Origin: a virus
DNA length: 64,000 nt
Virus record (IMG/VR): IMGVR_UViG_3300032053_000025
Span: 1-64,000 of that record
Direction: 5' to 3' (one strand)
A program made the position numbers and the translations under genes. The stretch's first letter is position 1. Every line of letters begins with the position of its first letter. The notes beneath the pieces were generated by a model, which was not told the DNA's origin, ran no database searches, and saw only the letters and a list, made by a program, of their open reading frames with translations. Shown piece by piece: positions 18,957-61,645 of this stretch.

Positions 18957-19098
18957 AGCTATTTTATTATTGATAGGAATTTATTGCTTATTTTTATTCA
19001 TAATTCCCGCTATATTAATGTGGTTATTTGAAAAATTAGGTACTTGGAAATTGTATAAGAAGTGGTTGAATGTTATTTTAAACGAGGATATAATATAA
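18940..19098 (+). CDS. Small membrane protein, 52 residues
   Basis: The start at 18940 (MSEIFK) is chosen because the longer frame from 18889 only duplicates the upstream gene. One long hydrophobic helix (AILLLIGIYCLFLFIIPAIL) is followed by an amphipathic basic segment. Its stop overlaps the start of the glycan cassette (TAATG). Confidence 0.6.
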   Translation: MSEIFKAILLLIGIYCLFLFIIPAILMWLFEKLGTWKLYKKWLNVILNEDII

Positions 19099-20372
19099 TG
19101 AATATTGGAGTAATTTTAGCTAGCGGTTCAGGAAATAGATTTCAATCTACCATTCCTAAACAGTACACAAAATTGAATGGTAGGCCGGTTATCTACTATG
19201 TTTTAGATGAATTTATTAAGTCTAAATTATTTGATAAAATTATAGTAGTAATCGATGATTTTAGGTTTAAATATTTGCTGGATAAATATCCAGTAATTGT
19301 AATTAAAGGGGGCGATACTCGCAATCGATCCATTGGGGAAGCAATCAAATATATATCTGATTATATTCCCAATACCCGAAATGTATTATTTCACGACGCG
19401 GTTCGCCCCTTAATTAAAGCCGAAGATTTATTCCAATATATGGATAGTTTAAATGGGGAAACAGTAATAGCCTCAATTACCACTGAAAAAGTAACCGATT
19501 CTTTATTATTTATTGATAGGTCAACAACCTGTTTAGTACAAACTCCCGAAGCTTTTGATTTTGAAATATTAAAATCAAGATTTAATCCTAAAGCAAATTA
19601 TACTGCAATTTATGAGCATTTAAAGCCCGCTATTAATGAGGAAATTGCACATATAGAATTAGGGCATCCAAACTATAAAATTACATATCAATACGATTTA
19701 TATATGCTTGAGCACTTAATTAAATACAATCAATATAAATCTACAATGCCTAATTTACAAGGCAAGAATATTCTATTGTTAGGTTCGACCGGAGGTATAG
19801 GTAAGGAAGTCTATAATCAATTAAAACAATTTCAACCTTTGAATATTTATTGCCCTTTACATTCAGAGATAGATTTATCCACTTATTTTATTGACAAATT
19901 GATGTCCAAATATACCTCAATCGATGTAATAATTAACTGTGCAGGTATAGCAATTAAAGATGAGGCTGAGAACTATGATATTCAAGAAAAAATATACAAT
20001 CAAACCTTTGATATTAATGTAAAAGCTCACTTACAGTTGATTAATTTTGCTGAACGTCAAAAGAGGCGGATTAATATAGTAACTATCAGTTCATCCTCAG
20101 TTACTAAGGGCAGACCTGGATATGGGATTTATTCTGCCTCTAAAATAGCCCTACAGAGCCTCATAGAGGCACAATCGGAAGCTTTAGCTGCCTCAGGTAT
20201 CTTTGTTACGTGTATATGCCCTGAACGAGTGGCAACTTCAATGGCAACAAATTTGCATGGGGAAGTTAATTTAGATGAAATGTTAAGTGTAGCTGAAGTT
20301 GCCCAAGCAATACTCTCATATAGTGATGTAAAAATAGGCGGAAAAATAATATATTTAAGAAGGGGGTTCTAA
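19098..20372 (+). CDS. Bifunctional cytidylyltransferase/short-chain reductase, Bcs1/Acs1-like (CDP-ribitol synthase)
   Basis: The 424-residue protein is a fusion. Residues 1-215 match IspD/TarI cytidylyltransferases: LASGSGNRF (7-15), PKQY (20-23), HDAVRP (99-104) and QTPEAF (148-153). Residues 220-424 are a short-chain dehydrogenase: GSTGGIGKEV (229-238), NCAG (280-283) and YSASK (Y345, K349). The same order occurs in Haemophilus Bcs1/Acs1, which reduces ribulose-5-phosphate and makes CDP-ribitol. That product is the donor for ribitol-phosphate transferases, and LicD/fukutin-type transferases follow directly. Substrate is inferred from architecture; another CDP-polyol cannot be excluded. 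The true start is at 19098, not the upstream ATG in frame. Confidence 0.82.
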   Translation: MNIGVILASGSGNRFQSTIPKQYTKLNGRPVIYYVLDEFIKSKLFDKIIVVIDDFRFKYLLDKYPVIVIKGGDTRNRSIGEAIKYISDYIPNTRNVLFHDAVRPLIKAEDLFQYMDSLNGETVIASITTEKVTDSLLFIDRSTTCLVQTPEAFDFEILKSRFNPKANYTAIYEHLKPAINEEIAHIELGHPNYKITYQYDLYMLEHLIKYNQYKSTMPNLQGKNILLLGSTGGIGKEVYNQLKQFQPLNIYCPLHSEIDLSTYFIDKLMSKYTSIDVIINCAGIAIKDEAENYDIQEKIYNQTFDINVKAHLQLINFAERQKRRINIVTISSSSVTKGRPGYGIYSASKIALQSLIEAQSEALAASGIFVTCICPERVATSMATNLHGEVNLDEMLSVAEVAQAILSYSDVKIGGKIIYLRRGF

Positions 20373-20374
20373 AA

Positions 20375-22243
20375 ATGCCTTACCGTAACCCGAATAATGC
20401 AGTAACAGTACTAACTTCATTAACCTCCATATTAACTACTTATGGTTTGAAGTATTTTCTTGATGGAGGAACCTTACTAGGAATTATACGTCAGAAGGCT
20501 TTCATCGAAAAAGACGGAGATATGGATATTGGTATTTTTACCAATGAATGGCAAGGATCAGAAGAGCATATTATATCAGCTTTAATAAATAAGGACTTTA
20601 AAATAGATAGGAATAATCCTCAATGTTTTGCTGTTAAGAAGGACAATATTCATATTGATTGCTGGAAATTCAATGAGAGGGACAATGATTATTTTCATTA
20701 TGGCTGGCAAGGCGAGTTTAGTTTTTGTAAAGACACTTTAGATACTTTAGATAAAGTTATTTTTATGAATCAAGAATTTACAACTCCCCATAATCCTAAA
20801 AAGTATCTCAAACATTTATATGGAGAGGATTGGCAAACTCCTAAATCTATGAATAAACCTTATGATTATCCTAACTATTCTGATAAGTCAACTTCAATGA
20901 GAGGATTGGCAAACTCCTATTCAATGAGAGTATTTTTGAAACAAGTTATTGATTTGCTCAATCAAAATGAAATTAGATATACCTTGATTTGTGGCTCGTT
21001 GCTTGGCGCATATAGGGATAAAAATATAATAGAAGGGGATGATGATTTTGATTTAGGCTTATTTGCGAAGGATTATGAGAAAGTTCGGCAATTATTAATT
21101 GATAATAATATCGTAATTAAAGCTCTATGGAGGAGAGAAATTTCAATTTTATCTACTCCACCTATCCCTAAATGTCAAATAGACCTATTCTTCTTAGAAA
21201 AGGAAGGTTCAAATTTATATTTATATTTATATAGCCAGAAACCCAATCCTTTATCTAAGAAATGGAATTTAGAATGGCGAAGGCAATTTCCGGCAAAATA
21301 TTTCAAGGAATTTGTACCTATTGATTTTATTGGATTAGAGGTTATGATACCTAAAGATACAGAAAAAATATTAGAACATCATTATGGAAACTGGAAGGTT
21401 AAGGATTCTAATGCTGAAGGAAATTTATGGAAACCAGATTCGATTGACCATAATTATAGAGAAATTGCAATTGTATCTACAAATTTTTTACGTAATGACA
21501 CCACGAAAGCATTTATAGAATCTATACAAAAAATACTGCCTAAAGAATGGTATAGGATTTATTTAGCAGACCAAGGCCCCTATGATGCAGAGATGGAGTT
21601 ATATTATGCAAAATTAAGGTTAGAAGGGCATGTTATTCAATGGTTGCCATACAACTGTGGATTAAGTTTTGCGAGGAATTACTTAGTTAAACAATCTAAA
21701 GAACCATACATATATTTAATGGATAATGATTTTATCCTTACTCCAGAGAGCGATCCTTCGCCAATGTTACAAATTTTAGAAGATAATCCTAATATAGGTA
21801 TTGTTGGTGCTAAATTAATCGAACATGAAGACTATCATTTTAATTTGATATGGTCGCTAAATCCTCGCAAATTATATTATGTGCCTACTTTGCCAACTTC
21901 AATTAGGCAAACTAAAGCATATAAATGCCAGAAAGCAATTTCATATAGGTTATGTGATATTGTCCTTAATTTTGCTTTATATAAAAGAGAAGTATTAAAT
22001 GACCTTTTATGGGATGAGGAATTAAAATTAGTCGAGCACTCCTCGTATTTTTTAAAACTAAAAGAATTAAACAAATGGCAGGTTGCATATACCCCAGATG
22101 TATTAGCTATTCATACTAAAGATAGGAAGGATGAAACTTATAGGACGTTTAGAGGTATTTTAAATGCTGAAAAATGCGAACAATTATTTCTTAAAAAATG
22201 GAAATTAGATAAACAAGATATAATCAAAATAAGAGGAGTATAA
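20375..22243 (+). CDS. Tandem LicD-type phosphotransferase fused to a GT2 glycosyltransferase
   Basis: The 622-residue protein has two LicD/fukutin-like domains. The first has GGTLLG (31-36) and KDGDMDIG (46-53). The second has GSLLG (207-211) and GDDDFDLG (221-228). From about residue 360 a GT2-like domain follows (REIAIVST, NCGLSFARN, and a DxD-type MDND at 449-452). LicD enzymes transfer phosphocholine, and the related FKTN/FKRP proteins transfer ribitol phosphate from CDP-ribitol. Placed 2 bases after a CDP-ribitol synthase, it is the likely consumer. It probably builds a ribitol-phosphate-bearing glycan. Both LicD domains keep their acidic residues. Confidence 0.8.
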   Translation: MPYRNPNNAVTVLTSLTSILTTYGLKYFLDGGTLLGIIRQKAFIEKDGDMDIGIFTNEWQGSEEHIISALINKDFKIDRNNPQCFAVKKDNIHIDCWKFNERDNDYFHYGWQGEFSFCKDTLDTLDKVIFMNQEFTTPHNPKKYLKHLYGEDWQTPKSMNKPYDYPNYSDKSTSMRGLANSYSMRVFLKQVIDLLNQNEIRYTLICGSLLGAYRDKNIIEGDDDFDLGLFAKDYEKVRQLLIDNNIVIKALWRREISILSTPPIPKCQIDLFFLEKEGSNLYLYLYSQKPNPLSKKWNLEWRRQFPAKYFKEFVPIDFIGLEVMIPKDTEKILEHHYGNWKVKDSNAEGNLWKPDSIDHNYREIAIVSTNFLRNDTTKAFIESIQKILPKEWYRIYLADQGPYDAEMELYYAKLRLEGHVIQWLPYNCGLSFARNYLVKQSKEPYIYLMDNDFILTPESDPSPMLQILEDNPNIGIVGAKLIEHEDYHFNLIWSLNPRKLYYVPTLPTSIRQTKAYKCQKAISYRLCDIVLNFALYKREVLNDLLWDEELKLVEHSSYFLKLKELNKWQVAYTPDVLAIHTKDRKDETYRTFRGILNAEKCEQLFLKKWKLDKQDIIKIRGV

Positions 22244-22244
22244 A

Positions 22245-23645
22245 ATGCCATATCAATTACCTATAATTACCGAAAGTTTAATGCCGATGGATCTAAAAGC
22301 TGTAGAAAATTTAATTATTCCTAAAGTGGAAAATAAGGATATAGGGATAGTATTTGATAGTTTTCTTAGGGATAAATTGGTATTTAATTTAATTGAGAGT
22401 ATATGCAAATATGCACCCGGTTATAGAATGTATATTGCAGACCAAGGAATATTTGACCCTATTAAAAATTCCCTTTATTTAAGGTTAGAAGCTAAAGGTC
22501 ATAAGATTATTTATTGCGGTTTCGATTCAGGTGTAGCAAGATGTAGAAATGAAGCAATTAAACAAGCAACAGAACCTTATGTATTCCTATGCGATGGAGA
22601 CAACATATTTATACCTCAAACTAATTTAGAAAAATTAAAAGACTTAATGAAGTCTAGATTTACTCTATATTGGCTTGCAGGTTTAGAAGTAATTGATGAT
22701 AAGCCTATGTATTATGAAAATAACTTAGCCATAAAAGATAGGGTAGTACATTATACTCCTCAGACTGAGGAGTTTAAAAATAGTAATAAAGCCGTATTTA
22801 TGTGCGATATGACTATGAATCAAGGCTTAGTTAAGACTAAGTTATTTGACATTGTTAAATATGACTCAAGAATGATGTTAGCAGAGCATCTAGATTTATT
22901 TTTGCAGATTCAGACTAAAACCAAATACAAAGTCGGTATTACTAAACTATCCTCCATAGGTAATCAAAATTTTAAAATAGACAATCCTATTTATAATAAG
23001 TATAGAGGTCGCAATAAATTGTTTTGGCAGTATTATATTGAAAAATGGGGAATAGATTATGTTAACGATTGGAAGATTGAAACTCCTGATAATAAACTCG
23101 AATATGTATTAGTAGAGGAGAAACCTATAATTCCTCTCCCAATAATTCCAATAATACCAGTTATGCCTATAGTTAAAACAGAGATTGCAATGGTTAAGCA
23201 ACCTCCAATTACAATTATACCTACACCTGTGACTGCCCCTAAACCAATACCGATAATTCCTAAACGAACAGAACCTTATAATGAAGTTACTCAAGCCTTA
23301 TTAGATTTTGCTTCAATTTTAGATTCCAATGAAAAGGATTATTATTTGCTGAAAGGCACATGCTTGAATTATTTATTGCATAAACCTTTGTTGAATAAAG
23401 TTTATATCGGTCTTGCTTTAAATAAATCTATTGTAGAAATTTTGGTTAAAAAAGGATATGAGCAAAATGCGGCCAATATATTCAGGAAGAATGGTATCGA
23501 TTTTATAATTGAGTCTTATATTCCTTCAAGGTTTAAAGAAGGCAATGCTTTAGAAGGAAAGAATTTTAAAGTTCCTTATCCTGCGGTAGCGTATTTAATC
23601 GAACAATTTGGTAAAGATTGGGCTTTAACAATATTAAAGGAATAA
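22245..23645 (+). CDS. GT2-like protein with proline-rich linker and degenerate LicD-like domain
   Basis: The 466-residue protein has an N-terminal GT2-like domain (IGIVFDSFLRDK, YIADQG, and a CDGDN DxD). A proline/isoleucine-rich linker (about residues 288-342) leads to a C-terminal domain with LKGTCLNYLL, which aligns with the GG(T/S)LLG start of LicD but lacks the DxD acids. The end (FGKDWALT) also resembles the LicD C-terminus. The transferase half could be active while the LicD-like half is probably a binding module. It overlaps the next gene (TAATG). Confidence 0.7.
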   Translation: MPYQLPIITESLMPMDLKAVENLIIPKVENKDIGIVFDSFLRDKLVFNLIESICKYAPGYRMYIADQGIFDPIKNSLYLRLEAKGHKIIYCGFDSGVARCRNEAIKQATEPYVFLCDGDNIFIPQTNLEKLKDLMKSRFTLYWLAGLEVIDDKPMYYENNLAIKDRVVHYTPQTEEFKNSNKAVFMCDMTMNQGLVKTKLFDIVKYDSRMMLAEHLDLFLQIQTKTKYKVGITKLSSIGNQNFKIDNPIYNKYRGRNKLFWQYYIEKWGIDYVNDWKIETPDNKLEYVLVEEKPIIPLPIIPIIPVMPIVKTEIAMVKQPPITIIPTPVTAPKPIPIIPKRTEPYNEVTQALLDFASILDSNEKDYYLLKGTCLNYLLHKPLLNKVYIGLALNKSIVEILVKKGYEQNAANIFRKNGIDFIIESYIPSRFKEGNALEGKNFKVPYPAVAYLIEQFGKDWALTILKE

Positions 23646-24418
23646 TGGCAGAATTAGCAATAATAACGACAACACTATTTAGGGATAACCTTACCAAACA
23701 ATTCTTTACTAATCTTAGAAATTTGTTAGGTAAAGGTAACTATAAATTATACCTTGCAGATTTAGGGGTTTATTCAATAGAAGCAGAGCATAATTATCAT
23801 TGGTTGTTAGAAGTTCGAGGACACCATTATGAATGGTTACCTTTCAATTGTGGATTGGGTCATACTTATAATGCCCTTTTAGCCAAAGTTAAGGAACCTT
23901 TCATATATTTTATCAATAATGATGCTATATTGGCTTTAAAGTGCCATCCTAAGCCTCTACAAGCCGTTCTGTTGCACGATCTATCTATAGGTGCAGTAGG
24001 AGGTCAAACAATAGGGAAATCGACTAATAGGCACAATTTAAGCCTATCTCACAAGCCTAAAACAAGATTATTAGTTACTCCTGTACCTTTAGCGGCAAAA
24101 AGAAAATTGCCTATAGAATCTTGTAGGAATTTGGATTATTATTTGTGTGATTATGTTGAAGGCCCAGTATTGTTCAGAAGAGAAGTATTTGAGGATATTA
24201 ACTTCGATCCTTCATTTAAGAATGGTAATTTATTGGATTTATTTTTAAGATTAAAAGCAACTGAAAAATGGAATGTTGCTCAGGTACCTACTATGCAGAT
24301 TAAGAATTTAATTAATAAAAAAAGGGGAGTATATAAGATGTTTAATTTACCTGAAGATAAGTTATTTATGGATAAATGGGGATTAAAAAAGAAAGATTTT
24401 ATTATAGTAGGAGAATAA
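23645..24418 (+). CDS. GT2-like glycosyltransferase
   Basis: The start at 23645 overlaps the previous stop. The 257-residue protein shares its plan with the GT2 domain of the tandem LicD protein: AIITTTLFRDN, YLADLG, WLPFNCGLGHTYN. The DxD position reads NNDA, so one acid is lost. It may act on a sugar nucleotide in the same pathway or have lost catalysis. I cannot assign a sugar. Confidence 0.7.
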   Translation: MAELAIITTTLFRDNLTKQFFTNLRNLLGKGNYKLYLADLGVYSIEAEHNYHWLLEVRGHHYEWLPFNCGLGHTYNALLAKVKEPFIYFINNDAILALKCHPKPLQAVLLHDLSIGAVGGQTIGKSTNRHNLSLSHKPKTRLLVTPVPLAAKRKLPIESCRNLDYYLCDYVEGPVLFRREVFEDINFDPSFKNGNLLDLFLRLKATEKWNVAQVPTMQIKNLINKKRGVYKMFNLPEDKLFMDKWGLKKKDFIIVGE

Positions 24419-24420
24419 TT

Positions 24421-25065
24421 ATGGAAAAGCTATTATTTATAGGAAGCCATTTAGACGATATAGAAATTGCAGCGGGAGGCACTGTTGCTAAAGCAATTCA
24501 AAAAGGACACGTTATAAAAACGGTCATTATGTCTAAATCCGACTATACTAACTATGACGGAAAAATATTACGGACATGGACTGAAGCCCACGAAGAAGGA
24601 ATAGAGGCCCTACATATTTTAGGCGTAACCGATATAGATATTTTATCTTTTTCCGTAAAGGATACTCCTTATGATTCTTCCTCTATAGAGGCACTTAATA
24701 AAATTATGGATAAATTTCAACCTACACAAATCATAACCCACTGGCCATTTGATACACATCAATCTCATCGCAATACTGCATTGGCTTCTATATCAGCAGG
24801 ACGGAACTTTAATAACATATTAATGTATGAATCCTTTCCACCTAGCGGAAGAAGTTATGTAGCATTTAAACCTCAAGTATATTCGGATATTACCGATGTT
24901 TTAGCACTCAAGATGCAATCCTTAAAAGCACATAAAAGTCAATATAAGAAATATGGAGAACTGTGGATAGATGCCGTAATTGGAAGAGCCCAATTAAGAG
25001 GGTGGGAATGTGGTAATAAGTATGCTGAATGTTTTGAATTATTAAGAAGCGACCTAATACTATGA
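24421..25065 (+). CDS. PIG-L/LmbE-type N-deacetylase
   Basis: The start at 24421 is preferred because the ORF start at 24376 overlaps the previous gene. The 214-residue protein has SHLDD (9-13) and THWPFDTHQSHRN (106-118), the zinc-binding motifs of LmbE/PIG-L deacetylases (H10, D13, H113 or H116). The family removes acetyl groups from GlcNAc-type sugars. Within this cassette it probably deacetylates a glycan intermediate. Confidence 0.85.
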   Translation: MEKLLFIGSHLDDIEIAAGGTVAKAIQKGHVIKTVIMSKSDYTNYDGKILRTWTEAHEEGIEALHILGVTDIDILSFSVKDTPYDSSSIEALNKIMDKFQPTQIITHWPFDTHQSHRNTALASISAGRNFNNILMYESFPPSGRSYVAFKPQVYSDITDVLALKMQSLKAHKSQYKKYGELWIDAVIGRAQLRGWECGNKYAECFELLRSDLIL

Positions 25066-25205
25066 TACATTATTATCCTCATAATGATTGGATTGAACAT
25101 AAATTAGAAGGCACTCAATGTATTTGCGAACCTAAAATTGATTGGCATTTAGGTATAGTTATTCATAATTCTGCCGATGGCAGAGAAGAGAAGGAGAGTA
25201 TATGA
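25062..25205 (+). CDS. Unknown 47-residue protein
   Basis: The frame overlaps the PIG-L stop (ATGA at 25062) and the next start (ATGA at 25202), which makes it a real member of the operon. The product is His/Cys-rich (CICEP, then HLGIVIHNSADGREE). Small proteins with this layout are common among phage hypotheticals; function is not known to me. Confidence 0.6.
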   Translation: MIHYYPHNDWIEHKLEGTQCICEPKIDWHLGIVIHNSADGREEKESI

Positions 25206-26425
25206 TAATTTCAATTCACCAGCCCGAGGCTTTCTGTCATTTATCCCTTTTAGATACAATATCTAAATCTGAGTTGTTTATTATTGGGGACGATTTTCAA
25301 TATCAGAAATCGTACTTTGACAATCGCAATAAAATTCGATCCAACTCTAAAGAAGGCTGGTCATGGCTAACTATCCCCGTTCAAGCTTCCAACAATCATA
25401 TTGCTATAAAGGATATTAAGGTAGCTTCGGGTGATTGGAAGAATAAATTACTCAATCAATTAACATCGAGCTATCAACATGCTCCTTATTTTAATGTTTA
25501 TTTTCCTCAATTGCAAGAATTATTGAAGACACAAAGCGAATACCTTATTGATTATACTTTACCTATACTACAATGGTTCCTACTCCAATTTAAAATTTAT
25601 ACTCCAATTAAATTAATGAGCAAATTAAATATCCAATCTGATAATGGTTCTGATAAGGTTTTGGAAATTTGTAAAAAGGTGGGAACAAATACTTACTTAT
25701 CGGGTCCAAGTGGGAAGGATTATCTGAATTTAGCTTCCTTTAAGGAAGCAGGAATAGACTTGCAGTATCATAATTATTTACATCCTTATTACCAATCATT
25801 TCCAAAGGTAGATATGCTCCCAGGCTTATCTGCTTTAGATTGTTTATTCTCACATGGACCAAACTCAAACAATATTATGCAGGCTAAAGGTATAGGTAGC
25901 ATGGCTACAATTATGGGGAATATTGAATATAAACATAGGTCCATTCTTGAGGTATTTGGCGGGGATGGTACGGGCCAATTATCATCATATGGTAACACAG
26001 TTGATTGTTCTAATTTAACAATATGGGAATTAGATTTGCAAAATGTATATAAACTTAGGGATAAATATCCTCATGCTAATGTTAAGCATGTTGATTCTTT
26101 AATTGAAGCCAAAAAGACTAATCAAACCTTTGATATTATTATAATTGATACTCCGGCATTGATGTCTAACAATAAATTATTACCTCAAATATCAAACTTA
26201 CTTACCGAGGATGAGGATGGAATACTTATATTTAGAGCAATTAAACAATCGTGGAATAATCATCCTTCAGTGGAAGTTGACCAACCCATTGAATATTGGA
26301 AATTAATTTTTCAACAGGACTTTGATATTATTAATATGAAAGAAGTGCAAAGAGAATATTTTTGGAGTGAAGGTAAGTGGAAATTATGGTTAAGCAATTA
26401 CCTTTTCCAATTAAGGAGGATATAA
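25202..26425 (+). CDS. WbqC-like protein fused to a class I methyltransferase
   Basis: The 407-residue protein starts with IHQPEAF and has GDDFQYQKSYFDNRNKIRS (residues 29-47), typical of the WbqC family found in O-antigen and glycan gene clusters. From about residue 245 a Rossmann domain follows (ILEVFGGDGTGQ, then IIIIDTP), an AdoMet-dependent methyltransferase. WbqC proteins are linked to amino-sugar modification. The fusion suggests stepwise modification of one sugar. The next gene starts one base after its stop. Confidence 0.75.
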   Translation: MIISIHQPEAFCHLSLLDTISKSELFIIGDDFQYQKSYFDNRNKIRSNSKEGWSWLTIPVQASNNHIAIKDIKVASGDWKNKLLNQLTSSYQHAPYFNVYFPQLQELLKTQSEYLIDYTLPILQWFLLQFKIYTPIKLMSKLNIQSDNGSDKVLEICKKVGTNTYLSGPSGKDYLNLASFKEAGIDLQYHNYLHPYYQSFPKVDMLPGLSALDCLFSHGPNSNNIMQAKGIGSMATIMGNIEYKHRSILEVFGGDGTGQLSSYGNTVDCSNLTIWELDLQNVYKLRDKYPHANVKHVDSLIEAKKTNQTFDIIIIDTPALMSNNKLLPQISNLLTEDEDGILIFRAIKQSWNNHPSVEVDQPIEYWKLIFQQDFDIINMKEVQREYFWSEGKWKLWLSNYLFQLRRI

Positions 26426-26426
26426 A

Positions 26427-27338
26427 ATGAGTAAAATATTCAAGCCTTTTAAACTCCCTAATGACTCTGTAGATGTAAATACTCTACAATTCCCTTTATT
26501 AGCCAGCAGAAAGCTGGATGGATTGAGACTAGTTGTCAACAAGGGTGGTATGTTTACTTGTTCATTAAAACAATTTCCCAATGTGCAATTGCAGGGCAGG
26601 TTCGAGCATTTAATGAAGATTTCCAGAGGACTAAATTTACTCTTAGATGGAGAATTATTAGCTAAGAGTTTAACTTTCTATGAATTAAGTGGGCTTTGCA
26701 GGAGGCTAGACGCACCCTTACCAGAGGATTTATATTTTTATGCCTTTGATGCGGTACAAAACGAGCAATATGATATGGAGTTTAGCAAGAGGATATCTTA
26801 TTTAGACAATATAGCAAAATATTCTTATGTTAAGGTTCTAGAACAAAGATTAGTTAAATCTATAGAAGAAGTCTGGGCATTTTATGAAGAGGCATTAAAA
26901 GAAGGTCATTGTGATGGGCTAATCTTGAGAAGCCCAATGGGTAGATATAAATGTGGTAGAGCAACTATCAATGAAGGTTTGGGATATAAATTAAAGCCAT
27001 TCGAGACAATAGACTCCGCAATTATAGGGGTTGTACAAGCAACTGAGGTAGATCCAAGGGCAGAAAAGACAATCAACGAGCTGGGGCGGAGTACAACCTC
27101 TAAGAAATTAGGGGATAGAATTTTAATTGAAAAAGCCTCTGCTTTTGTTGTCAAGTATGAAGGAAAAGATTTGAAAGTTACTATTGCAATGACTGATATA
27201 GAGAAAGAAGAAATTTGGAAGAATAAGGATTCTTATATTGGAAGATGGATTGAATTCAAAGCCATGAGGGTGGGAATGCTTGAAGATGGTTTGCCAAGGC
27301 ACCCCACAACCCTGAGAATGAGAACCGATAAAGACTAA
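26427..27338 (+). CDS. ATP-dependent DNA ligase
   Basis: The 303-residue enzyme has the adenylation motif KLDGLR (K29), motif III LDGEL, motif IV DGLILR and motif V YKLKPF, followed by an OB-fold domain. The length fits the minimal T7-type ligases. It joins nicks in phage DNA. Its place inside the glycan cassette is odd; it is coupled by 1-base and 1-base gaps to its neighbours. Confidence 0.88.
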   Translation: MSKIFKPFKLPNDSVDVNTLQFPLLASRKLDGLRLVVNKGGMFTCSLKQFPNVQLQGRFEHLMKISRGLNLLLDGELLAKSLTFYELSGLCRRLDAPLPEDLYFYAFDAVQNEQYDMEFSKRISYLDNIAKYSYVKVLEQRLVKSIEEVWAFYEEALKEGHCDGLILRSPMGRYKCGRATINEGLGYKLKPFETIDSAIIGVVQATEVDPRAEKTINELGRSTTSKKLGDRILIEKASAFVVKYEGKDLKVTIAMTDIEKEEIWKNKDSYIGRWIEFKAMRVGMLEDGLPRHPTTLRMRTDKD

Positions 27339-27339
27339 T

Positions 27340-27552
27340 ATGCACTATATGCCTAAAAATACCAACTATTTAGCGATACTCGATAAGACCGAATCCATAG
27401 GCAAACAAATTAACGCAAATAAAATGATTGATTTGCGTATAGCAAGGGGCGGTTGTTTTGTTGCCCGTTATTATATTAAGACTGCAAAAATTAAAGGTAT
27501 TGAAGTAGACTTAATGTATGAAGTCAAGATTTATGACAATCTGAAATCATAG
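27340..27552 (+). CDS. Unknown small protein
   Basis: The 70-residue basic protein (IDLRIARGGCFVARYYIK in the middle) follows the ligase after one base. No motif recognised. Confidence 0.6.
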   Translation: MHYMPKNTNYLAILDKTESIGKQINANKMIDLRIARGGCFVARYYIKTAKIKGIEVDLMYEVKIYDNLKS

Positions 27553-27562
27553 GAGAATAATA

Positions 27563-28258
27563 ATGGAAATTAAGCAATACAAAGACTATCAAATCCAACT
27601 TCGATCCTCCTCAGATGCAGGAGTATTCCAAGAAATTATCATTAACAATTGTTATGGTATTGATTTTAAATGGTTTGATAAAGTAAAGACCATCATTGAT
27701 ATTGGTGGCCATATAGGTATATTTAGTTTATTTATTGCTCCTTATGTTGATAAGATTTATACCTTTGAACCTTATTGGCAAAATTATAGATTATTGGTAG
27801 AAAATGTAGACCAGAATAATTTACTATCTAAAATTAAATGTCATCAAAAAGCAGTTACCCATTATGAAGGAGTAATTGATTTTTATGAATCTAAACAAAC
27901 CCATGTAAGACATACTATTGTACCTCCGGGGCAATTAAAATTTTGCGACCAAGGGGAGAAAATAATTGTGCCTTGCACTTCTCTCTTCAATATTATGTCT
28001 ACTATTGGGCATCCAACCTTATTGAAAATAGATATTGAAGGTGGAGAATATTCCTTACTATTCAATACACCCGAGCAAGCATTTAAAAATATTACTTACA
28101 TTGTTATGGAAACTCACCATGACGAATCTTCCCTTTTCAATAAAGACGATCTTATCAAAAAATTAGAAAGTTATGGCTACAAAGTTTCCTGGAAATTTAA
28201 CTGGAAAGACCCAGACTATAAAATGACAACCGGAGATTTAATAGCCATAAAAGAATAG
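27563..28258 (+). CDS. FkbM-family methyltransferase
   Basis: The 231-residue protein has the AdoMet motif DIGGHIG (46-52), FEP (68-70) and a C-terminal KIDIEGGE motif, the FkbM signature. FkbM enzymes O-methylate sugars or lipids in polysaccharide and natural-product clusters. A GGAG site precedes the start. It likely caps or modifies the glycan made here. Confidence 0.85.
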   Translation: MEIKQYKDYQIQLRSSSDAGVFQEIIINNCYGIDFKWFDKVKTIIDIGGHIGIFSLFIAPYVDKIYTFEPYWQNYRLLVENVDQNNLLSKIKCHQKAVTHYEGVIDFYESKQTHVRHTIVPPGQLKFCDQGEKIIVPCTSLFNIMSTIGHPTLLKIDIEGGEYSLLFNTPEQAFKNITYIVMETHHDESSLFNKDDLIKKLESYGYKVSWKFNWKDPDYKMTTGDLIAIKE

Positions 28259-28265
28259 GAGTAAA

Positions 28266-29141
28266 ATGAGTTATAAACTCCAATTATTAAAAGAAAGTTT
28301 AATACCAATTACTGCCCAAGATTTAATTAATATAGGTGGAATTCCACCTATAGACCCCACCAAACAAGTGGCTATTGTTATTGATTCCTTCCTTAGAGAT
28401 AAATGTTTATTAATCCTCCTTAAAAGTATATTTAAATTCGCACCTCATTATAAAATTTATATTACAGGCCAGGGCATCTATAGTAAAGAGAAAGATGCCC
28501 TTTTTTGTTTATTGAAGGTAGCAGGCCATACCATAATTAATTGTGGCTTTGATGCAGGATTAGGTCAATGTCACAAAAAGATAGTAGAATTTGTGACTGA
28601 GCCTTATATATTTTTCTGCCATGAGGACGCTTTATTTACTGATAAAACTAACTTAGAATCAATGGTTAATATAATCAAACTTAATAGATATAGATTAGGT
28701 TGGCTATCTCCTTCTTCCTTATTCAATCAACCTTCCCATTTATTATTGAAAAATTTAAATTTAGCTATTACTCCTCTTGAAGTAGAATTTAAAAATAGTC
28801 ATAGAGATCCATTTATTTGCGATATTGCAGGTACTCAAGGTTTAGTTAAATCAACCTTATTTAGTTCAATCCAATATGATGCTCAATTTAAAATGAATGA
28901 AACTTTAGACTTAATGTTAAACATGAAATTTAATACTGTTAATAGAGTAGCAATCACCAACCAATCTATATTATGGCATCAAGAACCTTGTGAGCATCCT
29001 ATCTATCTTCAATATAAGCATAGGGAATGGTATTATGACCAATTATTAAGGACTAAATGGCAATTTACAAGTATTAATGGAAGAAAAATTAAAAGGGATA
29101 ATACTAAGTTTCTTTATGTTATGGAGGAAAATAATGGATAA
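28266..29141 (+). CDS. GT2-like glycosyltransferase paralog
   Basis: The 291-residue protein aligns with the N-terminal part of the protein at 22245 (SFLRDK, GQGIY, NCGFDAGLG, TEPYIFF). The DxD site reads CHEDA, so the first acid is replaced by His. A GGAG site precedes the ATG. The last 8 bases overlap the next gene. Confidence 0.7.
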   Translation: MSYKLQLLKESLIPITAQDLINIGGIPPIDPTKQVAIVIDSFLRDKCLLILLKSIFKFAPHYKIYITGQGIYSKEKDALFCLLKVAGHTIINCGFDAGLGQCHKKIVEFVTEPYIFFCHEDALFTDKTNLESMVNIIKLNRYRLGWLSPSSLFNQPSHLLLKNLNLAITPLEVEFKNSHRDPFICDIAGTQGLVKSTLFSSIQYDAQFKMNETLDLMLNMKFNTVNRVAITNQSILWHQEPCEHPIYLQYKHREWYYDQLLRTKWQFTSINGRKIKRDNTKFLYVMEENNG

Positions 29142-29889
29142 ATCTATCGCAGTAATTATGCCCTGCTTTAAACGTAACGAATTATTAGCCCAAACTGTAG
29201 AAACATATAAGCAATTTATGCCTAAAGATTGGGTATTATTAATTGGGGATCAAGACCCTTCTGAGGCTAAATTTAAGCAATATAATGCTGGCAATATTCA
29301 TTATTATCCCCTCCCCTATGATTGCGGGATTAGCTTAGCCAGAAATATGTTGATTAAAGAAGCCTCTAAATCAGGCTTCGAATACGGATTATTATCTGCC
29401 GATAGTATACCATTAATTAAAACGCCGGATTTAACTCCATATATTGAATTCCTTAAAATGGATCCTAATCATGGAATTATCGGGCTTCCTACGAGCGATA
29501 ATTTAAAGAAAGAGGATTTATGGAATGCTAATTTGTCCATTGATTCTGAGGGAATTCATTTATGGCCCGCTAACGAGTATACCGAGTTTAATGGGATTAA
29601 ATATAAGAAATGCCAGATTGTTAGCAATTTCTTTTTGTTTAAATTGCAATTAGCACTTGAGAACCCTTGGAGGGAGGAATTAAAATTAGCAGAGCATGAA
29701 TCGTTTTTCATTGACCTAATGCAGAAAACTTTATACAAGGTTTTCCATACTCCCTATAGGTTCGCTACATATATTCAATCTCGACCACCAGATTATGATA
29801 TTTATAGGCGAAGGTTGTATGATACTTATATCCCGTTGCTTCGTAAACTTTATGGGCTGAGGGCCTGGATAATTTACCATAATCGTTAA
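29134..29889 (+). CDS. GT2-like glycosyltransferase
   Basis: The start at 29134 follows GGAGG. The 251-residue protein has VIMPCFKRNELL, LIGDQDPS and DCGISLARN, clearly GT2. The usual DxD is replaced by SADS. It is the fifth protein or domain of one paralogous set in this cassette. Confidence 0.75.
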   Translation: MDKSIAVIMPCFKRNELLAQTVETYKQFMPKDWVLLIGDQDPSEAKFKQYNAGNIHYYPLPYDCGISLARNMLIKEASKSGFEYGLLSADSIPLIKTPDLTPYIEFLKMDPNHGIIGLPTSDNLKKEDLWNANLSIDSEGIHLWPANEYTEFNGIKYKKCQIVSNFFLFKLQLALENPWREELKLAEHESFFIDLMQKTLYKVFHTPYRFATYIQSRPPDYDIYRRRLYDTYIPLLRKLYGLRAWIIYHNR

Positions 29890-29900
29890 CAGGAGGTTTA

Positions 29901-30062
29901 ATGTTATTAGGAGCTCGAGTTCTAGCTAGGATTGACAATAAAGTCAAAGAATGTAGAGTAATTGATATTCAAGGGGACAATCTACAATTGGAAGCTGTTA
30001 CCGGCGAAATTATAAGCCGAAAATATTGGCAAGTAAATGGGGTTAAAAATGAGCAAGCCTAA
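29901..30062 (+). CDS. Unknown 53-residue protein
   Basis: AGGAGG at 29891-29896 precedes ATG. The small protein looks like a compact beta-barrel (LLGARVLARIDNKVKECRV). Its stop overlaps the next gene. Function unknown. Confidence 0.6.
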   Translation: MLLGARVLARIDNKVKECRVIDIQGDNLQLEAVTGEIISRKYWQVNGVKNEQA

Positions 30063-30777
30063 TCAGTTAATTATTCTTGGGGGAGGAGTATCGGTAACTG
30101 AAGGAATTGAATTAGGCCTTTGGGATAAAATTAAAGACCACTATGTTATGGGACTTAATTTTGCCTTCAAAACATTTAATCCAACCTTCACTTGTTTTGT
30201 TGACCCTATAAGTTTCTACCGAACATATAAGAGTGATATATTTAATCTGCCTTTAATTGTAGGTCGATATTCGAAAGATATTGTTAAGGATATTTGGCCC
30301 AATACAATTCTATTAAAGGATACTTGGATTTATAAGAGGGATTGCTCTGAGGGAGTTTACAATATATTTTTATGTGGAATATTTGGATTATCGTTAGCAA
30401 TTTATTTAGCAGATAAGATAGATATAAAAGAAATTTTCATGTTAGGGATAGATGGTGGAAACATAACTGGCAACCATGATAAATTTGGAAAATGGGAATC
30501 ACATTACTATAGTTCAGAATTTACCCATAAGGGAACAGGTAAAATTAAGACCTATCATAAAGATGATGCTATACATAAAATGTATAAGGCTTTTGAGCAA
30601 GTTCAAGACATCAATATTTACAATGTTTCGCCTTTAAGTAGGATTAAACAGTTTCCTAAGATTGATTATTTGACATTCTTCGATAAAATTGAGACTACAA
30701 CTTATGACCAAAACTTACTTAGACTTGATATTAAACAACATTGCATAGATTTAGCAAACTTGCAAAAACAACATTAA
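30049..30777 (+). CDS. MptE-like/DUF115-type Rossmann protein
   Basis: The start at 30049 is chosen from the ATG in the overlap; the frame from 30037 is longer only by a few codons. The 242-residue protein begins ILGGGVSV and has VMGLNFAFKTFNP and CFVDPISFYR, the pattern of MptE-like/DUF115 proteins, which include transferases in flagellin and surface glycosylation. It could also be related to sialyltransferase-type folds. It ends the glycan cassette. Confidence 0.6.
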   Translation: MSKPNQLIILGGGVSVTEGIELGLWDKIKDHYVMGLNFAFKTFNPTFTCFVDPISFYRTYKSDIFNLPLIVGRYSKDIVKDIWPNTILLKDTWIYKRDCSEGVYNIFLCGIFGLSLAIYLADKIDIKEIFMLGIDGGNITGNHDKFGKWESHYYSSEFTHKGTGKIKTYHKDDAIHKMYKAFEQVQDINIYNVSPLSRIKQFPKIDYLTFFDKIETTTYDQNLLRLDIKQHCIDLANLQKQH

Positions 30778-31119: not shown

Positions 31120-31337
31120 AATATCTTAGCAATAAACCATTCTCGGTGCCTGTAGGCACCTTACCATTCAATATTAAGCCTAATTGCGATTCATGCTGGC
31201 ATTTTAAACGTTCAAACTTCTTTAGTAAACATCAATGTAATAATTGCCATTCATGGAAAAACTTCCTCAAAAAGGAAGTTAATTTTAAACAGGTTATTGA
31301 TAATTTTCTATATCAATTATTTTTGGAGAAGAAATAA
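31116..31337 (+). CDS. Small zinc-binding protein
   Basis: The 73-residue protein has CDSC and CNNC pairs spaced as in a zinc finger. A perfect 7-base inverted repeat (GGTGCCT/AGGCACC, 31145-31160) lies in the coding sequence. No family recognised. Confidence 0.6.
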   Translation: MKYLSNKPFSVPVGTLPFNIKPNCDSCWHFKRSNFFSKHQCNNCHSWKNFLKKEVNFKQVIDNFLYQLFLEKK

Positions 31338-31338
31338 C

Positions 31339-32907
31339 ATGGCAACCTTATTTACAGCAGATTTGCATGGTAATGATACAACGATTGCTCTTCTAAGAGG
31401 ATTTAAGACTAAAGAAGAGCATGATAGTTGGCTTATTCATTGTTGGAATCAACAAGTTAATAAAAATGATTTAGTATATGTATTAGGTGATTTTTGTAAA
31501 GGTAATCACCATGAAGTAAGATCATTTAGAATGAAATTAAAAGGTAAAATTATTTTAATCCTCGGAAACCACGACCATTGTTTCTCTCTTGAAACCGAAA
31601 TATTAACAACCGCCGGATATAAATCCTTTAAATATTTAAAAATGGGAGATATTATTCCCACAATTAATAAAGAACAAAATATTATAGAAATGAACCCCAT
31701 CGAAAATATAATGCAGGCATGGGTAGATCAAGCATATATGTTTAACGGAAGGTCTGCTTCGGGGGTTTTCAGTAAAAATCACGAACATATAATTTTGCAA
31801 AATACTTATTTAAAAAATAAAACCGAACCAATAGAACGTAAATGGGTTAAATTACCTTCTTCTACCATTTGGAATTATAAATCTCGTTTATTAATGCCCG
31901 CTTCATTTATAAGTGGCCAGGAAGATATTAATATTTCAGATAACTGGCTATCGTTTTTTGGATGGTTATTTAGCGATGGGGGATTTGATAAACAAGGGGC
32001 CATTACTTTATACCAAAGTAAACCAAAAAATATACCAATTATTGAACATTTATTAACACAACTTAAATTAACATATACGACTACTATAAGAAAAAATAAA
32101 ACCCCTAATTGGTATAATAACAAACTCATTAAGGGCAATTATCCAGCATTTGAATTTAGAATAAAGAGCGTAATAGGAAAACCAATATTAGAACAATTTT
32201 CCATAACCCACCGCCACCAATTACCTTCTTGGTTTTTTAATCTTTCTGATAGGCAAGTGCGGTTGTTCCTTACCTCTTATAAATTGGGAAACGGAAGCAA
32301 GGGTAATTCCCCCTCAGAGTGTGTATGGGGAACAAAAGAATTATTATCCAGTCTTATGGGACTGTGTATTACGCATGGAATAGATTGTAATCTAGTGGAG
32401 CAAAATACTAGAAAGGGGGTCTATTATTTATGTTTGCGTAACAGACCTTTTGTAAAAAATATGCAGTACAAAAGAAATTATGGCATTAGAGAGATACCAG
32501 TAACCAATAGACAAATTATTTCTTATAATAATATGATGTACGATATAGAAGTTAAAAATCACACCTTTTTTATTAGACACAATGGAAAATCTTTAATTAC
32601 AGGAAATTCTAACCGTATCCAAAATTTACCAGAATTATTCACTGGGATTTATGATATCAAGGAAATTAAAATCCGGGGATTCAAAACCACATTATGCCAT
32701 TATTCGTTACGGACATGGCCATCATCAAATTTTAATTCATTTATGCTCCACGGGCATAGTCATGGAGGCTTATTACCTCAAGGCAAGCAACTTGATGTTG
32801 ACATAGGTTCTAATCATGGAATCTTATATACTGAGGATGATATCTTAGCTATTATGAAACTTCGTGGGGACAATTTTAATTACATCGATAAATCCATAAC
32901 TCCTTAA
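31339..32907 (+). CDS. Calcineurin-like phosphoesterase interrupted by an intein
   Basis: The product is 522 residues; without the intein (residues 81-423) it is about 179. The host protein has DLHGND near residue 8, GDFCKGNH, GNHDH at 76-80 and a C-terminal LHGHSHG, a complete metallophosphoesterase. The intein sits right after GNHDH, so the enzyme needs splicing to rejoin this metal-binding motif. Such phage enzymes may act on nucleotides, cyclic dinucleotides or RNA ends; an RNA ligase lies close by. The ATG at 31339 has a GGAGA site. Confidence 0.85.
   Translation: MATLFTADLHGNDTTIALLRGFKTKEEHDSWLIHCWNQQVNKNDLVYVLGDFCKGNHHEVRSFRMKLKGKIILILGNHDHCFSLETEILTTAGYKSFKYLKMGDIIPTINKEQNIIEMNPIENIMQAWVDQAYMFNGRSASGVFSKNHEHIILQNTYLKNKTEPIERKWVKLPSSTIWNYKSRLLMPASFISGQEDINISDNWLSFFGWLFSDGGFDKQGAITLYQSKPKNIPIIEHLLTQLKLTYTTTIRKNKTPNWYNNKLIKGNYPAFEFRIKSVIGKPILEQFSITHRHQLPSWFFNLSDRQVRLFLTSYKLGNGSKGNSPSECVWGTKELLSSLMGLCITHGIDCNLVEQNTRKGVYYLCLRNRPFVKNMQYKRNYGIREIPVTNRQIISYNNMMYDIEVKNHTFFIRHNGKSLITGNSNRIQNLPELFTGIYDIKEIKIRGFKTTLCHYSLRTWPSSNFNSFMLHGHSHGGLLPQGKQLDVDIGSNHGILYTEDDILAIMKLRGDNFNYIDKSITP
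31579..32607 (+). mobile_element. Intein in the phosphoesterase active-site motif
   Basis: This 343-residue element starts with Cys (CFSLETEILTTAGYK, block A) and ends LITGN before Ser. LAGLIDADG-like motifs FFGWLFSDGG (206-215) and LFLTSYKLGNG (309-319) are present. The penultimate residue is Gly, not the usual His, and block B reads KNHEH in place of the usual TxxH. These are known variants, but splicing efficiency is uncertain. Frame is intact. Confidence 0.85.
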
Positions 32908-59563: not shown

Positions 59564-60991
59564 TTATTTTTTTATTGCATTAACCAAATAAATTATATTC
59601 CCAGTTGGATTATCTTGTAATCGCCATTCACCCTGCCAACCAAATTTATATATATCTTGAATATCTATCAAACTACCCAATCTTTCCTTAATTACTTGCT
59701 CATTATAAACTCTTAAATGACTTTCATCCAAAAAATTGGGTACTGAAAATATTAACCTTTTTTCTTTAGGTATATTTGATAAAATCTTATAATCATCTAA
59801 ATGCTCTAATACTTCGGTGGCAATATAGGTATCATATTCGCCTTCATAATTTGATTTATCATAAGCATTACCCACAACAACTTGAGGACTATTGGCAATT
59901 TTAACTGCTTCGTGTGAGAAATCAAACCCGTTATAATTTTTAATAAAATTTTTTAAATTTGCAATTCCACATCCGATATCTAAACATCTATCTTCGCCAA
60001 CTAACTGCCCTATTTTATTGTACAGATGGTAATACCTAGACATGTCTGAAGAATTTGCAAATAATTTGTCATAATAATCCGATTTTTTTTCAACTTTAGA
60101 TCGTATAGTTAATACGTTATTATTGGTTGCTAATTCTGCATATTCTAACCATTTAATCCGGTTATTCGGTCCACATAACTCTGCCATAAATTCTATGGCT
60201 TCTTTAAAATCTGCGTTTACTTTAATTGCTTGTAAGCAGGCATCCTTGGCCTCATCATTTTTGTTAAGTGCCCAATAACATCTAGCCAACATTAACCAGG
60301 CTTCTGCCCATTCGGGGGGCCAATTTGTCCGGGTCAAATAATCTTTATACCAGTAAATTGCAGTAATCCAATCCTTACGATACCAAAATTCCCGCGCCAG
60401 ATAGAAACATTCACGAATCAGATTAGGATTATTACTTAATTCTTGTTTCAATATCCTTAATGCTCTATCAGGATCGTGTTGATGTGCCTTGCTATAGCCA
60501 AAGGTAATTTTTATATCCGACTTGTTATTATCGGTATAACTCAAATAATTATGAATGTTACCTTTCCAATATACTTCTGGGCATCGCTTGAATAATCGAG
60601 GAAAATAAAATTGGTCGCCCGTTATATTGGCTTCCATTATACAATTAATAGTTTTTTGATTGTGTGATTCCGCAAATTCTATTGCCTTGCGGATTTTTAG
60701 TAGCCCTCCGATTTCGAGAGATTCATCTGCATCAATGCTAAGGATAAAATCGGTATCGGCTTTGGATAAAATAAAATTGCGGGCGGAACAAAATGAATCG
60801 TGCCAAACATCCTCGGTATAAATATTATCGGTATATTTCTTTGCTATTTCAATAGTATTATCTTGGCTGCCGGTGTCTGAAATATAGAGTGCATCTGCCT
60901 CTTTTATACTTTCAAGGCACTTGGCCAGACATTCCGACTCATTTTTTACAATTAGGCACACACCAATAGTAAGCTTTTTATTTTGTTCCAT
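59564..60991 (-). CDS. GT2-TPR-methyltransferase fusion in the virion operon
   Basis: The 475-residue protein has an N-terminal GT2 domain (LIVKNESE, YISDTGSQDNT, and IDADE at 86-90 as DxD), TPR-like helices (about 200-275: WAEAWLMLARCYWALNKNDE) and a C-terminal methyltransferase (LDIGCGIANL, ATEVLEHL). TPR-linked transferases often modify proteins. It lies between the collagen-like fibre and the discoidin fibre genes, so it may glycosylate the virion fibres. A TATAAT box lies upstream but has a poor spacer. Confidence 0.8.
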   Translation of the reverse strand: MEQNKKLTIGVCLIVKNESECLAKCLESIKEADALYISDTGSQDNTIEIAKKYTDNIYTEDVWHDSFCSARNFILSKADTDFILSIDADESLEIGGLLKIRKAIEFAESHNQKTINCIMEANITGDQFYFPRLFKRCPEVYWKGNIHNYLSYTDNNKSDIKITFGYSKAHQHDPDRALRILKQELSNNPNLIRECFYLAREFWYRKDWITAIYWYKDYLTRTNWPPEWAEAWLMLARCYWALNKNDEAKDACLQAIKVNADFKEAIEFMAELCGPNNRIKWLEYAELATNNNVLTIRSKVEKKSDYYDKLFANSSDMSRYYHLYNKIGQLVGEDRCLDIGCGIANLKNFIKNYNGFDFSHEAVKIANSPQVVVGNAYDKSNYEGEYDTYIATEVLEHLDDYKILSNIPKEKRLIFSVPNFLDESHLRVYNEQVIKERLGSLIDIQDIYKFGWQGEWRLQDNPTGNIIYLVNAIKK

Positions 60992-61069
60992 AAAATATTA
61001 AAGCATATATTGCCAATTATAGTTTTATAAAATTGTTCCCAATAAACACGATTCCGATTTGCTAAAGAA

Positions 61070-61645
61070 TTATGTGGTAGAAATAATTAAGCAGCCATAG
61101 TCAGAAGAATACGTAGCACCCGGCCCAGTTTGGCCTTGGGGCCCTGTAATACCAATAGTTCCTCGATCCCCTTTACTTCCTTTGGTACCCTGTATGCCCT
61201 GAGATCCTAATGTACCTCGATCTCCCTTAGTTCCCTGAATACCTTGAGAACCCAAGGTACCTCTATCGCCCTTACTACCTTTGGTGCCTTGAATTCCGGC
61301 AGTCCCTTGTATACCTTGGGACCCTAAAGTTCCTCTATCACCTTTGGTGCCTTGAATACCCTGTTGGCCCAAATATTCTGCCCAAGTAGTGCCACTAGTA
61401 CAATGATAATACTTATCTTCGTCGTCTACCCATACTATCATACCTTCCAAAGGTGTGTCATAAAGAAAAGAAGTAGCCGCTACATTACAATAAGCTATCT
61501 GTCCTACATTTGCGCCATCAGTAAGTAAATACCTATCACCTTTTGCGGCTGCTCCAGTTAAACTAATTAATCCTGCCGCTGTAACTCTGTCCTTCACACT
61601 TGGTTGCCAAACAAAATTTTCTAAAACGGGTACTCTGTAACTCAT
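61070..61645 (-). CDS. Collagen-like fibre protein
   Basis: The 191-residue protein has an N-terminal domain shared with the discoidin fibre (MSYRVPVLE, GMIVWVDDEDKYYH), then about 28 Gly-X-Y triplets (GTKGDRGTLGSQGIQGT pattern), then a short C-terminal cap. Gly-X-Y runs form collagen triple helices, so a trimeric rod is expected. AAGGAG precedes the start. The repeats have few prolines (only late GPQ and GPG). Confidence 0.85.
   Translation of the reverse strand: MSYRVPVLENFVWQPSVKDRVTAAGLISLTGAAAKGDRYLLTDGANVGQIAYCNVAATSFLYDTPLEGMIVWVDDEDKYYHCTSGTTWAEYLGQQGIQGTKGDRGTLGSQGIQGTAGIQGTKGSKGDRGTLGSQGIQGTKGDRGTLGSQGIQGTKGSKGDRGTIGITGPQGQTGPGATYSSDYGCLIISTT

What the first reader, a model, noticed from the sequence alone, without database searches (positions are those of the whole stretch)
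19098..30777. Phage-borne glycan cassette of about 12 kb
Seen: fused cytidylyltransferase-reductase, tandem LicD-GT2, several GT2 paralogs, PIG-L, WbqC-methyltransferase, FkbM and an MptE-like protein in one coupled operon. Known: these families build and modify bacterial surface glycans. Inference: the phage makes a decorated glycan for its virion or for the host surface. A set this large is unusual in a siphovirus.
Basis: partly seen in the sequence, partly recalled or inferred. Interest (0 to 1): 0.82.

Follow-up and report, generated by a model that had tools for sequence, protein, structure and literature searches.

The report
Phage polyol-phosphate glycan gene cassette
An uncultured tailed phage carries about ten genes predicted to make an activated sugar alcohol and build a phosphate-linked, trimmed and methylated sugar chain inside the cell, most likely to coat part of its own particle, although the target has not been shown.

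Summary
Ten of the twelve genes at 19098-30777 look like glycan genes: an IspD-reductase fusion, a LicD-LicD-GT2 protein, four further GT2 paralogs, PIG-L, WbqC and FkbM (the tenth, the 'MptE-like' gene, is unassigned). Three corrections. An ATP-dependent DNA ligase and a 70-aa ORF sit inside the set. 'MptE-like' is not supported. The methyltransferase half of the WbqC protein is unverified. What it most likely makes is a polyol-phosphate glycan. The fused enzyme keeps both sets of catalytic motifs. In 8 of 10 bacterial loci the same fusion lies beside a CDP-alditol phosphotransferase (LicD or TagF-type), against 1 of 8 stand-alone IspD loci. The phage LicD domains match human FKRP, the ribitol-phosphate transferase. 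No cassette protein has a clear membrane helix, and no flippase, polymerase or initiating enzyme was found, so the acceptor is probably cytosolic. The phage head operon places a collagen-like protein beside another GT2-methyltransferase, a neighbourhood that recurs in two of three unrelated viral contigs. A virion target is therefore favoured over host surface or DNA, but not shown. It is a new variant of a known kind: 'Flandersviridae' phages have an ispD+licD pair.

The parts
19098..20372 (+). Bifunctional CDP-alditol synthase (IspD/TarI-like cytidylyltransferase + short-chain reductase), 424 aa
   Evidence: Pfam IspD and adh_short; PDB hits to IspD, ribitol-5-P cytidylyltransferases and SDRs; all catalytic motifs kept in an alignment with 9 bacterial fusions and YerA41
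20375..22243 (+). LicD-LicD-GT2 protein, 622 aa: two phosphotransferase domains and GT2a
   Evidence: Pfam LicD and Glycos_transf_2; PDB hits FKRP E 8e-6 and B4GALNT1 E 2.5e-7; LicD halves homologous
22245..23645 (+). GT2b with proline-rich linker and a degenerate LicD-like tail lacking the D-x-D site
   Evidence: Pfam GT2; paralogy and weak tail match; partial model matches B4GALNT1 and TarP/TarS
23645..24418 (+). GT2c
   Evidence: 34% identical to GT2a, E 1e-48; the ATG at 23645 overlaps the stop of GT2b
24421..25065 (+). PIG-L/BshB-type N-deacetylase
   Evidence: PF02585 E 3e-17; NCBIfam BshB1 below cut-off; PHROG 11796
25202..26425 (+). WbqC family protein with a C-terminal half that by eye resembles a SAM methyltransferase
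   Evidence: PF08889 E 4e-54 over residues 7-223; second half unassigned
26427..27338 (+). ATP-dependent DNA ligase inside the cassette, not a glycan gene
   Evidence: PF01068 and PF14743
27563..28258 (+). FkbM family methyltransferase
   Evidence: PF05050 E 5e-11, TIGR01444 above its cut-off
28266..29141 (+). GT2d
   Evidence: 37% identical to GT2b, E 8e-65
29134..29889 (+). GT2e
   Evidence: 32% identical to GT2a, E 1e-28; Pfam GT2 8e-5
30037..30777 (+).
   Evidence: No family match; structure model unusable
59564..60991 (-). GT2-TPR-methyltransferase protein in the head operon; candidate attaching enzyme of the same system
   Evidence: Pfam; 48-53% identical relatives in three viral contigs
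61070..61645 (-). Collagen-like protein with Thr/Ser-rich G-X-Y repeats; candidate virion acceptor
   Evidence: PF01391 E 1e-14; sequence; collagen-like proteins beside the same GT in L047 and L049
57847..59553 (-). DUF2793 + F5/8 type C protein of the head operon, N-terminus similar by eye to the collagen-like protein
   Evidence: Pfam; sequences

Best explanation
The cassette is a cytosolic pathway for a polyol-phosphate-bearing glycan. The fused enzyme reduces a sugar phosphate (probably a pentulose 5-phosphate) and charges it with CTP to give a CDP-alditol, probably CDP-ribitol. The two LicD domains move the alditol phosphate from it onto a growing glycan, as FKTN/FKRP do. The five GT2 paralogs add the sugars; PIG-L removes an N-acetyl group; FkbM and perhaps the WbqC protein methylate or otherwise cap the chain. 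The most likely acceptor is a virion protein, with the collagen-like head-operon protein beside the GT2-TPR-methyltransferase as the first candidate. Shown here: families, motifs, gene order, neighbourhoods. Inferred: the substrates, the order of steps and the acceptor.
For: Both halves of the synthase keep the motifs shared by bacterial fusions (KQ[YF], GGxxRxxS, HDAVRP, QTPxAF, GxxGG/GIG, NxA, YxxxK, PERxxTxM). The fusion lies beside a CDP-alditol phosphotransferase in 8 of 10 bacterial loci against 1 of 8 stand-alone IspD loci (Fisher p 0.015). LicD matches FKRP. The ISPD/FKTN/FKRP logic and the bifunctional Acs1 are documented (PMC4873967; PMC10918830). No cassette protein reaches a clear transmembrane score, while membrane ORFs nearby do. 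Two bacterial fusion-LicD pairs lie in flagellar loci, one beside flagellin and a nucleotide-sugar set that reads as the pseudaminic acid pathway; flagellin glycosylation is cytosolic (general knowledge). Head operon: collagen-like protein next to GT2-TPR-MT, repeated in L047 and L049. Virion glycosylation is known in mycobacteriophages (Freeman 2023, cited in PMC11256854).
Against: The cassette lies with replication genes on the other strand from the head operon, 30 kb away, so the link between them is by inference. The synthase scores about equally with IspD and ribitol models and below every cut-off, so the alditol is not identified. LicD also matches a cholinephosphotransferase model. The collagen link rests on two of three contigs. 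No substrate or product has been measured.
Confidence: 0.5

Rival explanations
1. The cassette alters the host surface: the enzymes act on the host's lipid-linked glycan precursors in the cytosol, adding alditol phosphate and other groups so that other phages cannot adsorb, during infection or in a lysogen.
For: The fusion occurs in capsule-type loci with ABC export genes and TagF-like enzymes (L022, L024). The phage has a tyrosine integrase. Benler et al. proposed surface change for the ispD+licD pair of Flandersviridae (PMC8008677).
Against: No initiating phosphoglycosyl transferase, flippase, polymerase or ligase was found, and no clear membrane helix in the cassette. No repressor was identified. 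Host unknown.
Confidence: 0.27
2. The cassette builds a glycan on modified bases of the phage DNA, as proposed for Yersinia phage YerA41, which carries the same kind of IspD-reductase fusion.
For: YerA41 and its near relative vB_Yru_GN1 have the only other near-full-length fusions found in 50,697 phage records, and YerA41 has a T modification of about 1 kDa (PMC9023294), whose discoverers linked these genes to sugar-modified nucleotides (PMC7354516). The cassette lies among replication genes.
Against: No thymidylate synthase/hydroxymethylase family gene in the nearly complete genome, with a working control, and no TET hit in the larger ORFs scanned with Pfam, although the TET-specific search had no working control. 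The phage carries ordinary DNA methyltransferases. The YerA41 link is itself unproven.
Confidence: 0.15
3. The genes are unrelated acquisitions, partly decayed or with separate tasks (phosphocholine transfer, bacillithiol-type deacetylation), and do not form one pathway.
For: A DNA ligase and a small ORF interrupt the set, the GT2b tail has lost its LicD site, and some GT2 copies lack a full D-x-D motif.
Against: Full-length ORFs, tight spacing with ribosome-binding sites, intact motifs in the synthase and LicD domains, and the donor synthase directly next to its expected transferase.
Confidence: 0.08

Closest known systems
Acs1/Bcs1-type bifunctional CDP-ribitol synthase of Haemophilus influenzae capsule loci
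   Same: Cytidylyltransferase fused to a reductase, as documented in PMC4873967 and PMC10918830; cytidylyltransferase N-terminal in the relatives aligned here
   Different: Borne by a phage, 27-31% identical to the bacterial fusions found here, paired with a tandem LicD protein; product not tested
ISPD / FKTN / FKRP ribitol-phosphate pathway of alpha-dystroglycan
   Same: IspD-type donor enzyme plus two LicD-type transferase domains; LicD matches FKRP by sequence
   Different: Both LicD domains in one polypeptide fused to a GT2; reductase built in; acceptor unknown; only distant homology
ispD+licD insertion in 'Flandersviridae' gut phages (PMC8008677)
   Same: Adjacent ispD-family and licD-family genes in the replication module
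   Different: There only the two genes are described, read as isoprenoid and teichoic-acid functions; here a ten-gene glycan set in an apparently unrelated phage with Shine-Dalgarno sites
Yersinia phage YerA41 sugar gene block
   Same: IspD-reductase fusion among glycosyltransferase genes
   Different: KpsC-like transferases in place of LicD/GT2; DNA is heavily modified there; 26% identity
Vibrio phage VH2_2019 block (PIG-L, two WbqC-like, methyltransferase, GT)
   Same: PIG-L, WbqC, methyltransferase and GT together near the replication genes
   Different: No alditol synthase, no LicD, GT of another kind
Virion glycosylation of mycobacteriophages such as Che8
   Same: Phage glycosyltransferases that act on the phage's own structural proteins
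   Different: No CDP-alditol or LicD step known to me there; acceptors are capsid and tail tube

Membership tests
Bifunctional CDP-ribitol synthase (Acs1 type) | Cytidylyltransferase domain with intact IspD-fold motifs | tested here: met
Bifunctional CDP-ribitol synthase (Acs1 type) | Fused SDR reductase with cofactor motif and YxxxK | tested here: met
Bifunctional CDP-ribitol synthase (Acs1 type) | Ribitol-5-phosphate specificity | tested here: inconclusive
   NCBIfam ispD 115 bits and ribitol model 81 bits, both below cut-off
LicD/fukutin family phosphotransferase | LicD profile match with the D-x-D site | tested here: met
   Pfam 81.5 bits against cut-off 22.6; motif in both halves
LicD/fukutin family phosphotransferase | Transfers alditol phosphate from a CDP donor | not testable with these tools
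   Gene context only
GT2 glycosyltransferases | GT-A fold with D-x-D | tested here: inconclusive
   Pfam match for GT2a, GT2b and GT2e; D-x-D present in GT2a and GT2b only; model of GT2b partial
MptE-like (PF01973) | Profile match | tested here: not met
   None at E<=10 with working controls
Virion glycosylation system | Glycan on a structural protein | not testable with these tools
   Needs mass spectrometry; neighbourhood evidence
DNA hypermodification system | Base hydroxymethylase of the thymidylate synthase family | tested here: not met
   PF00303 absent, control rings in 9 genomes
DNA hypermodification system | TET/JBP dioxygenase | tested here: inconclusive
   No match, but the control did not ring; no hit in the Pfam scans of larger ORFs
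Wzx/Wzy- or ABC-dependent surface polysaccharide locus | Initiating transferase, flippase or exporter, polymerase | tested here: not met
   No such Pfam match in the ORFs scanned and no clear membrane helix in the cassette
'Flandersviridae' | Shared terminase and colinear genome | not tested
   No reference genome of that group was compared; the terminase has no match in 50,697 phage records

The most novel reading that the evidence does not exclude
The phage synthesises tandem ribitol-phosphate units, chemically like the FKTN/FKRP core of human dystroglycan, and mounts them on a collagen-like fibre of its head: a viral polyol-phosphate glycoprotein.
Probability: 0.17. Interest if true: 0.82.

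Novelty: new variant of a known kind. Interest (0 to 1): 0.56.

Why it matters
If true, a phage carries a complete donor-to-transfer route for alditol phosphates. That would explain why ispD-like and licD-like genes occur together in phages (earlier read as isoprenoid and teichoic-acid genes), gives a concrete acceptor to test, and offers soluble relatives of FKRP in a compact system.

Tried and rejected
Close viral relatives of the cassette: seven of eight scans of IMG/VR, with cassette proteins, DNA polymerase and terminase, found none; only the head-operon GT gave three loci. The five-GT alignment was too diverse to scan. The LicD pair in genome contigs gave a single hit in a SAR86 MAG without glycan neighbours that I could recognise. 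No plasmid match to the LicD-GT2 protein. Structure of the 'MptE-like' protein failed (pLDDT 36); GT2b was modelled only over about residues 13-116. A tree of the fusions does not place the phage enzyme: long branch, no starred clade. Isoprenoid synthesis was rejected as the role of the IspD part because of the fused reductase and the LicD/TagF neighbours. Identifying the host failed: Shine-Dalgarno sites speak against Bacteroidota (general knowledge), nothing more.

Full report
What is there. The window is bases 1-64000 of an 88,621-bp virus record. Its first 143 and last 143 bases are nearly identical (126 identical bases in a row, two differences before them), so the record is close to a complete genome although it is classed as linear. 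Replication genes and the cassette run on the plus strand; packaging, head and tail genes run on the minus strand. Pfam and PHROGs recognise a primase with an intein, a RecA-like protein, DNA polymerase, a DnaQ-like exonuclease, a tape measure protein, integrase and three DNA methyltransferases. Terminase, portal, major capsid protein, protease and tail tube were named by reading the sequences, without a profile match. No sheath was seen, which fits a siphovirus.

The cassette. From 19098 to 30777 there are twelve genes on one strand, most of them overlapping or within 10 bp, many with Shine-Dalgarno sites. Ten look like parts of a glycan pathway, counting the unassigned last gene. A DNA ligase (26427-27338) and a 70-aa ORF are inside. 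The five GT2 domains are paralogs in one family, with GT2b/GT2d and GT2a/GT2c as the closest pairs. The 622-aa protein holds two LicD domains and one GT2 domain; both LicD domains keep the catalytic D-x-D. GT2b has a LicD-like tail that has lost it.

What the donor is. The first gene fuses an IspD/TarI-type cytidylyltransferase to a short-chain reductase. To learn what such fusions do, I ran the protein against samples from the phylum, a class and two orders of bacteria around a SAR86 MAG (Pseudomonadota, general knowledge): 399, 369, 300 and 395 genomes, some drawn more than once. I took the surroundings of ten full-length fusions and eight stand-alone IspD matches. Eight of ten fusions have a CDP-alditol phosphotransferase of the LicD (2) or TagF/PF04464-like (6) kind as a neighbour; one of eight stand-alone genes has (Fisher p 0.015). 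Four of the ten supplied query sequences, so the independent part is 4 of 6 against 1 of 8 (p 0.09). A ninth locus, L033, has a neighbour that by eye is TagF-like. One of the ten, L014/L024, is interrupted by a TAG codon. In the phage the fused gene is directly followed by a LicD protein whose second LicD domain matches human FKRP (E 8e-6). The published logic is the same: ISPD makes CDP-ribitol, the LicD proteins FKTN and FKRP use it, and H. influenzae Acs1 combines reductase and cytidylyltransferase (PMC4873967, PMC10918830). The phage enzyme keeps the conserved motifs of both halves. I conclude that a CDP-alditol is made and used; that it is ribitol is likely but not shown.

Where the glycan goes. 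None of the cassette proteins has a clear transmembrane helix (maximum hydropathy 1.94 for the unassigned protein and 1.65 for the rest, against 2.5-3.0 for membrane ORFs nearby). No initiating transferase, flippase, polymerase or ligase was found in the ORFs scanned. That points to a cytosolic acceptor, or to work on host precursors. Two of the bacterial fusion-LicD pairs (L021, L023) lie in flagellar loci; L021 also holds flagellin genes and a nucleotide-sugar set that reads as the pseudaminic acid pathway, a setting where protein is glycosylated in the cytosol (general knowledge). In the phage head operon a GT2-TPR-methyltransferase (59564-60991) lies next to a collagen-like protein with Thr/Ser-rich repeats (61070-61645) and a DUF2793/F5-F8C protein (57847-59553). 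Three viral contigs encode relatives of this enzyme at 48-53% identity, and in two of them (L047, L049) a collagen-like protein lies within one gene of it, although their other genes do not match this phage apart from HNH-type genes in L048. Thus a virion acceptor is the best guess. The bond between cassette and head operon is an inference.

DNA as target. Yersinia phage YerA41 and its near relative vB_Yru_GN1 have the only other near-full-length fusions found in 50,697 phage records, and YerA41 DNA carries a thymidine modification of about 1 kDa with 184-Da distal units (PMC9023294). Its authors linked those genes to nucleotide modification (PMC7354516). I therefore looked for a base-hydroxylating enzyme here: none of the thymidylate synthase family (controls ring), and no TET by Pfam in the larger ORFs (the dedicated TET search had no working control). 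This rival is kept at 0.15.

Novelty. Phage ispD+licD pairs were described in Flandersviridae (PMC8008677), the PIG-L/WbqC/methyltransferase/GT combination occurs in Vibrio phage VH2_2019, and virion glycosylation is established in mycobacteriophages (cited in PMC11256854 and PMC12619734). What is new is the size and completeness of the set, the tandem LicD-GT2 architecture and the reading of these genes as one alditol-phosphate pathway. I file it as a new variant of a known kind.

Limits. One uncultured genome, host unknown, no close relatives of the cassette in IMG/VR by peptide-pattern scans, which find close relatives only. All functions are predicted from sequence.

Noticed in passing
window 1-143 and record 88479-88621 (L004 8479-8621): The two ends of the record are nearly identical over 143 bases (126 identical in a row, two mismatches before), so the 'linear' record is probably a complete, circular or circularly permuted genome of about 88.5 kb.
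   Followed up: yes
window 1753-4932 and 31297-32907: Two apparent inteins with LAGLIDADG domains: one in the primase (Intein_splicing and LAGLIDADG_3 hits), one interrupting a metallophosphoesterase.
   Followed up: partly
window 59564-61645; L047 3152-8017; L049 3205-9011: A GT2-TPR-(methyltransferase) gene recurs beside collagen-like proteins in otherwise unrelated viral contigs; this may be a general phage collagen-glycosylation module.
   Followed up: partly
L003 14601-15554 (record 78601-79554): A second collagen-like protein, with a signal-anchor-like N-terminus, beside the integrase gene.
   Followed up: no
window 33551-34144 and 26427-27338: An RNA ligase and an ATP-dependent DNA ligase, the latter inside the glycan cassette.
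   Followed up: no
L021 8906-11942 and L023 9027-12064: Bacterial IspD-SDR fusion plus a 566-567-aa LicD protein within flagellar gene clusters, suggesting alditol-phosphate decoration of flagellin; a literature search for flagellin, LicD and glycosylation island together found no paper.
   Followed up: partly
window 62194-63939, L003 564-2210: Portal- and terminase-like proteins have no PHROG match, and the terminase no tblastn match among 50,697 phages: the phage is a very divergent lineage.
   Followed up: partly
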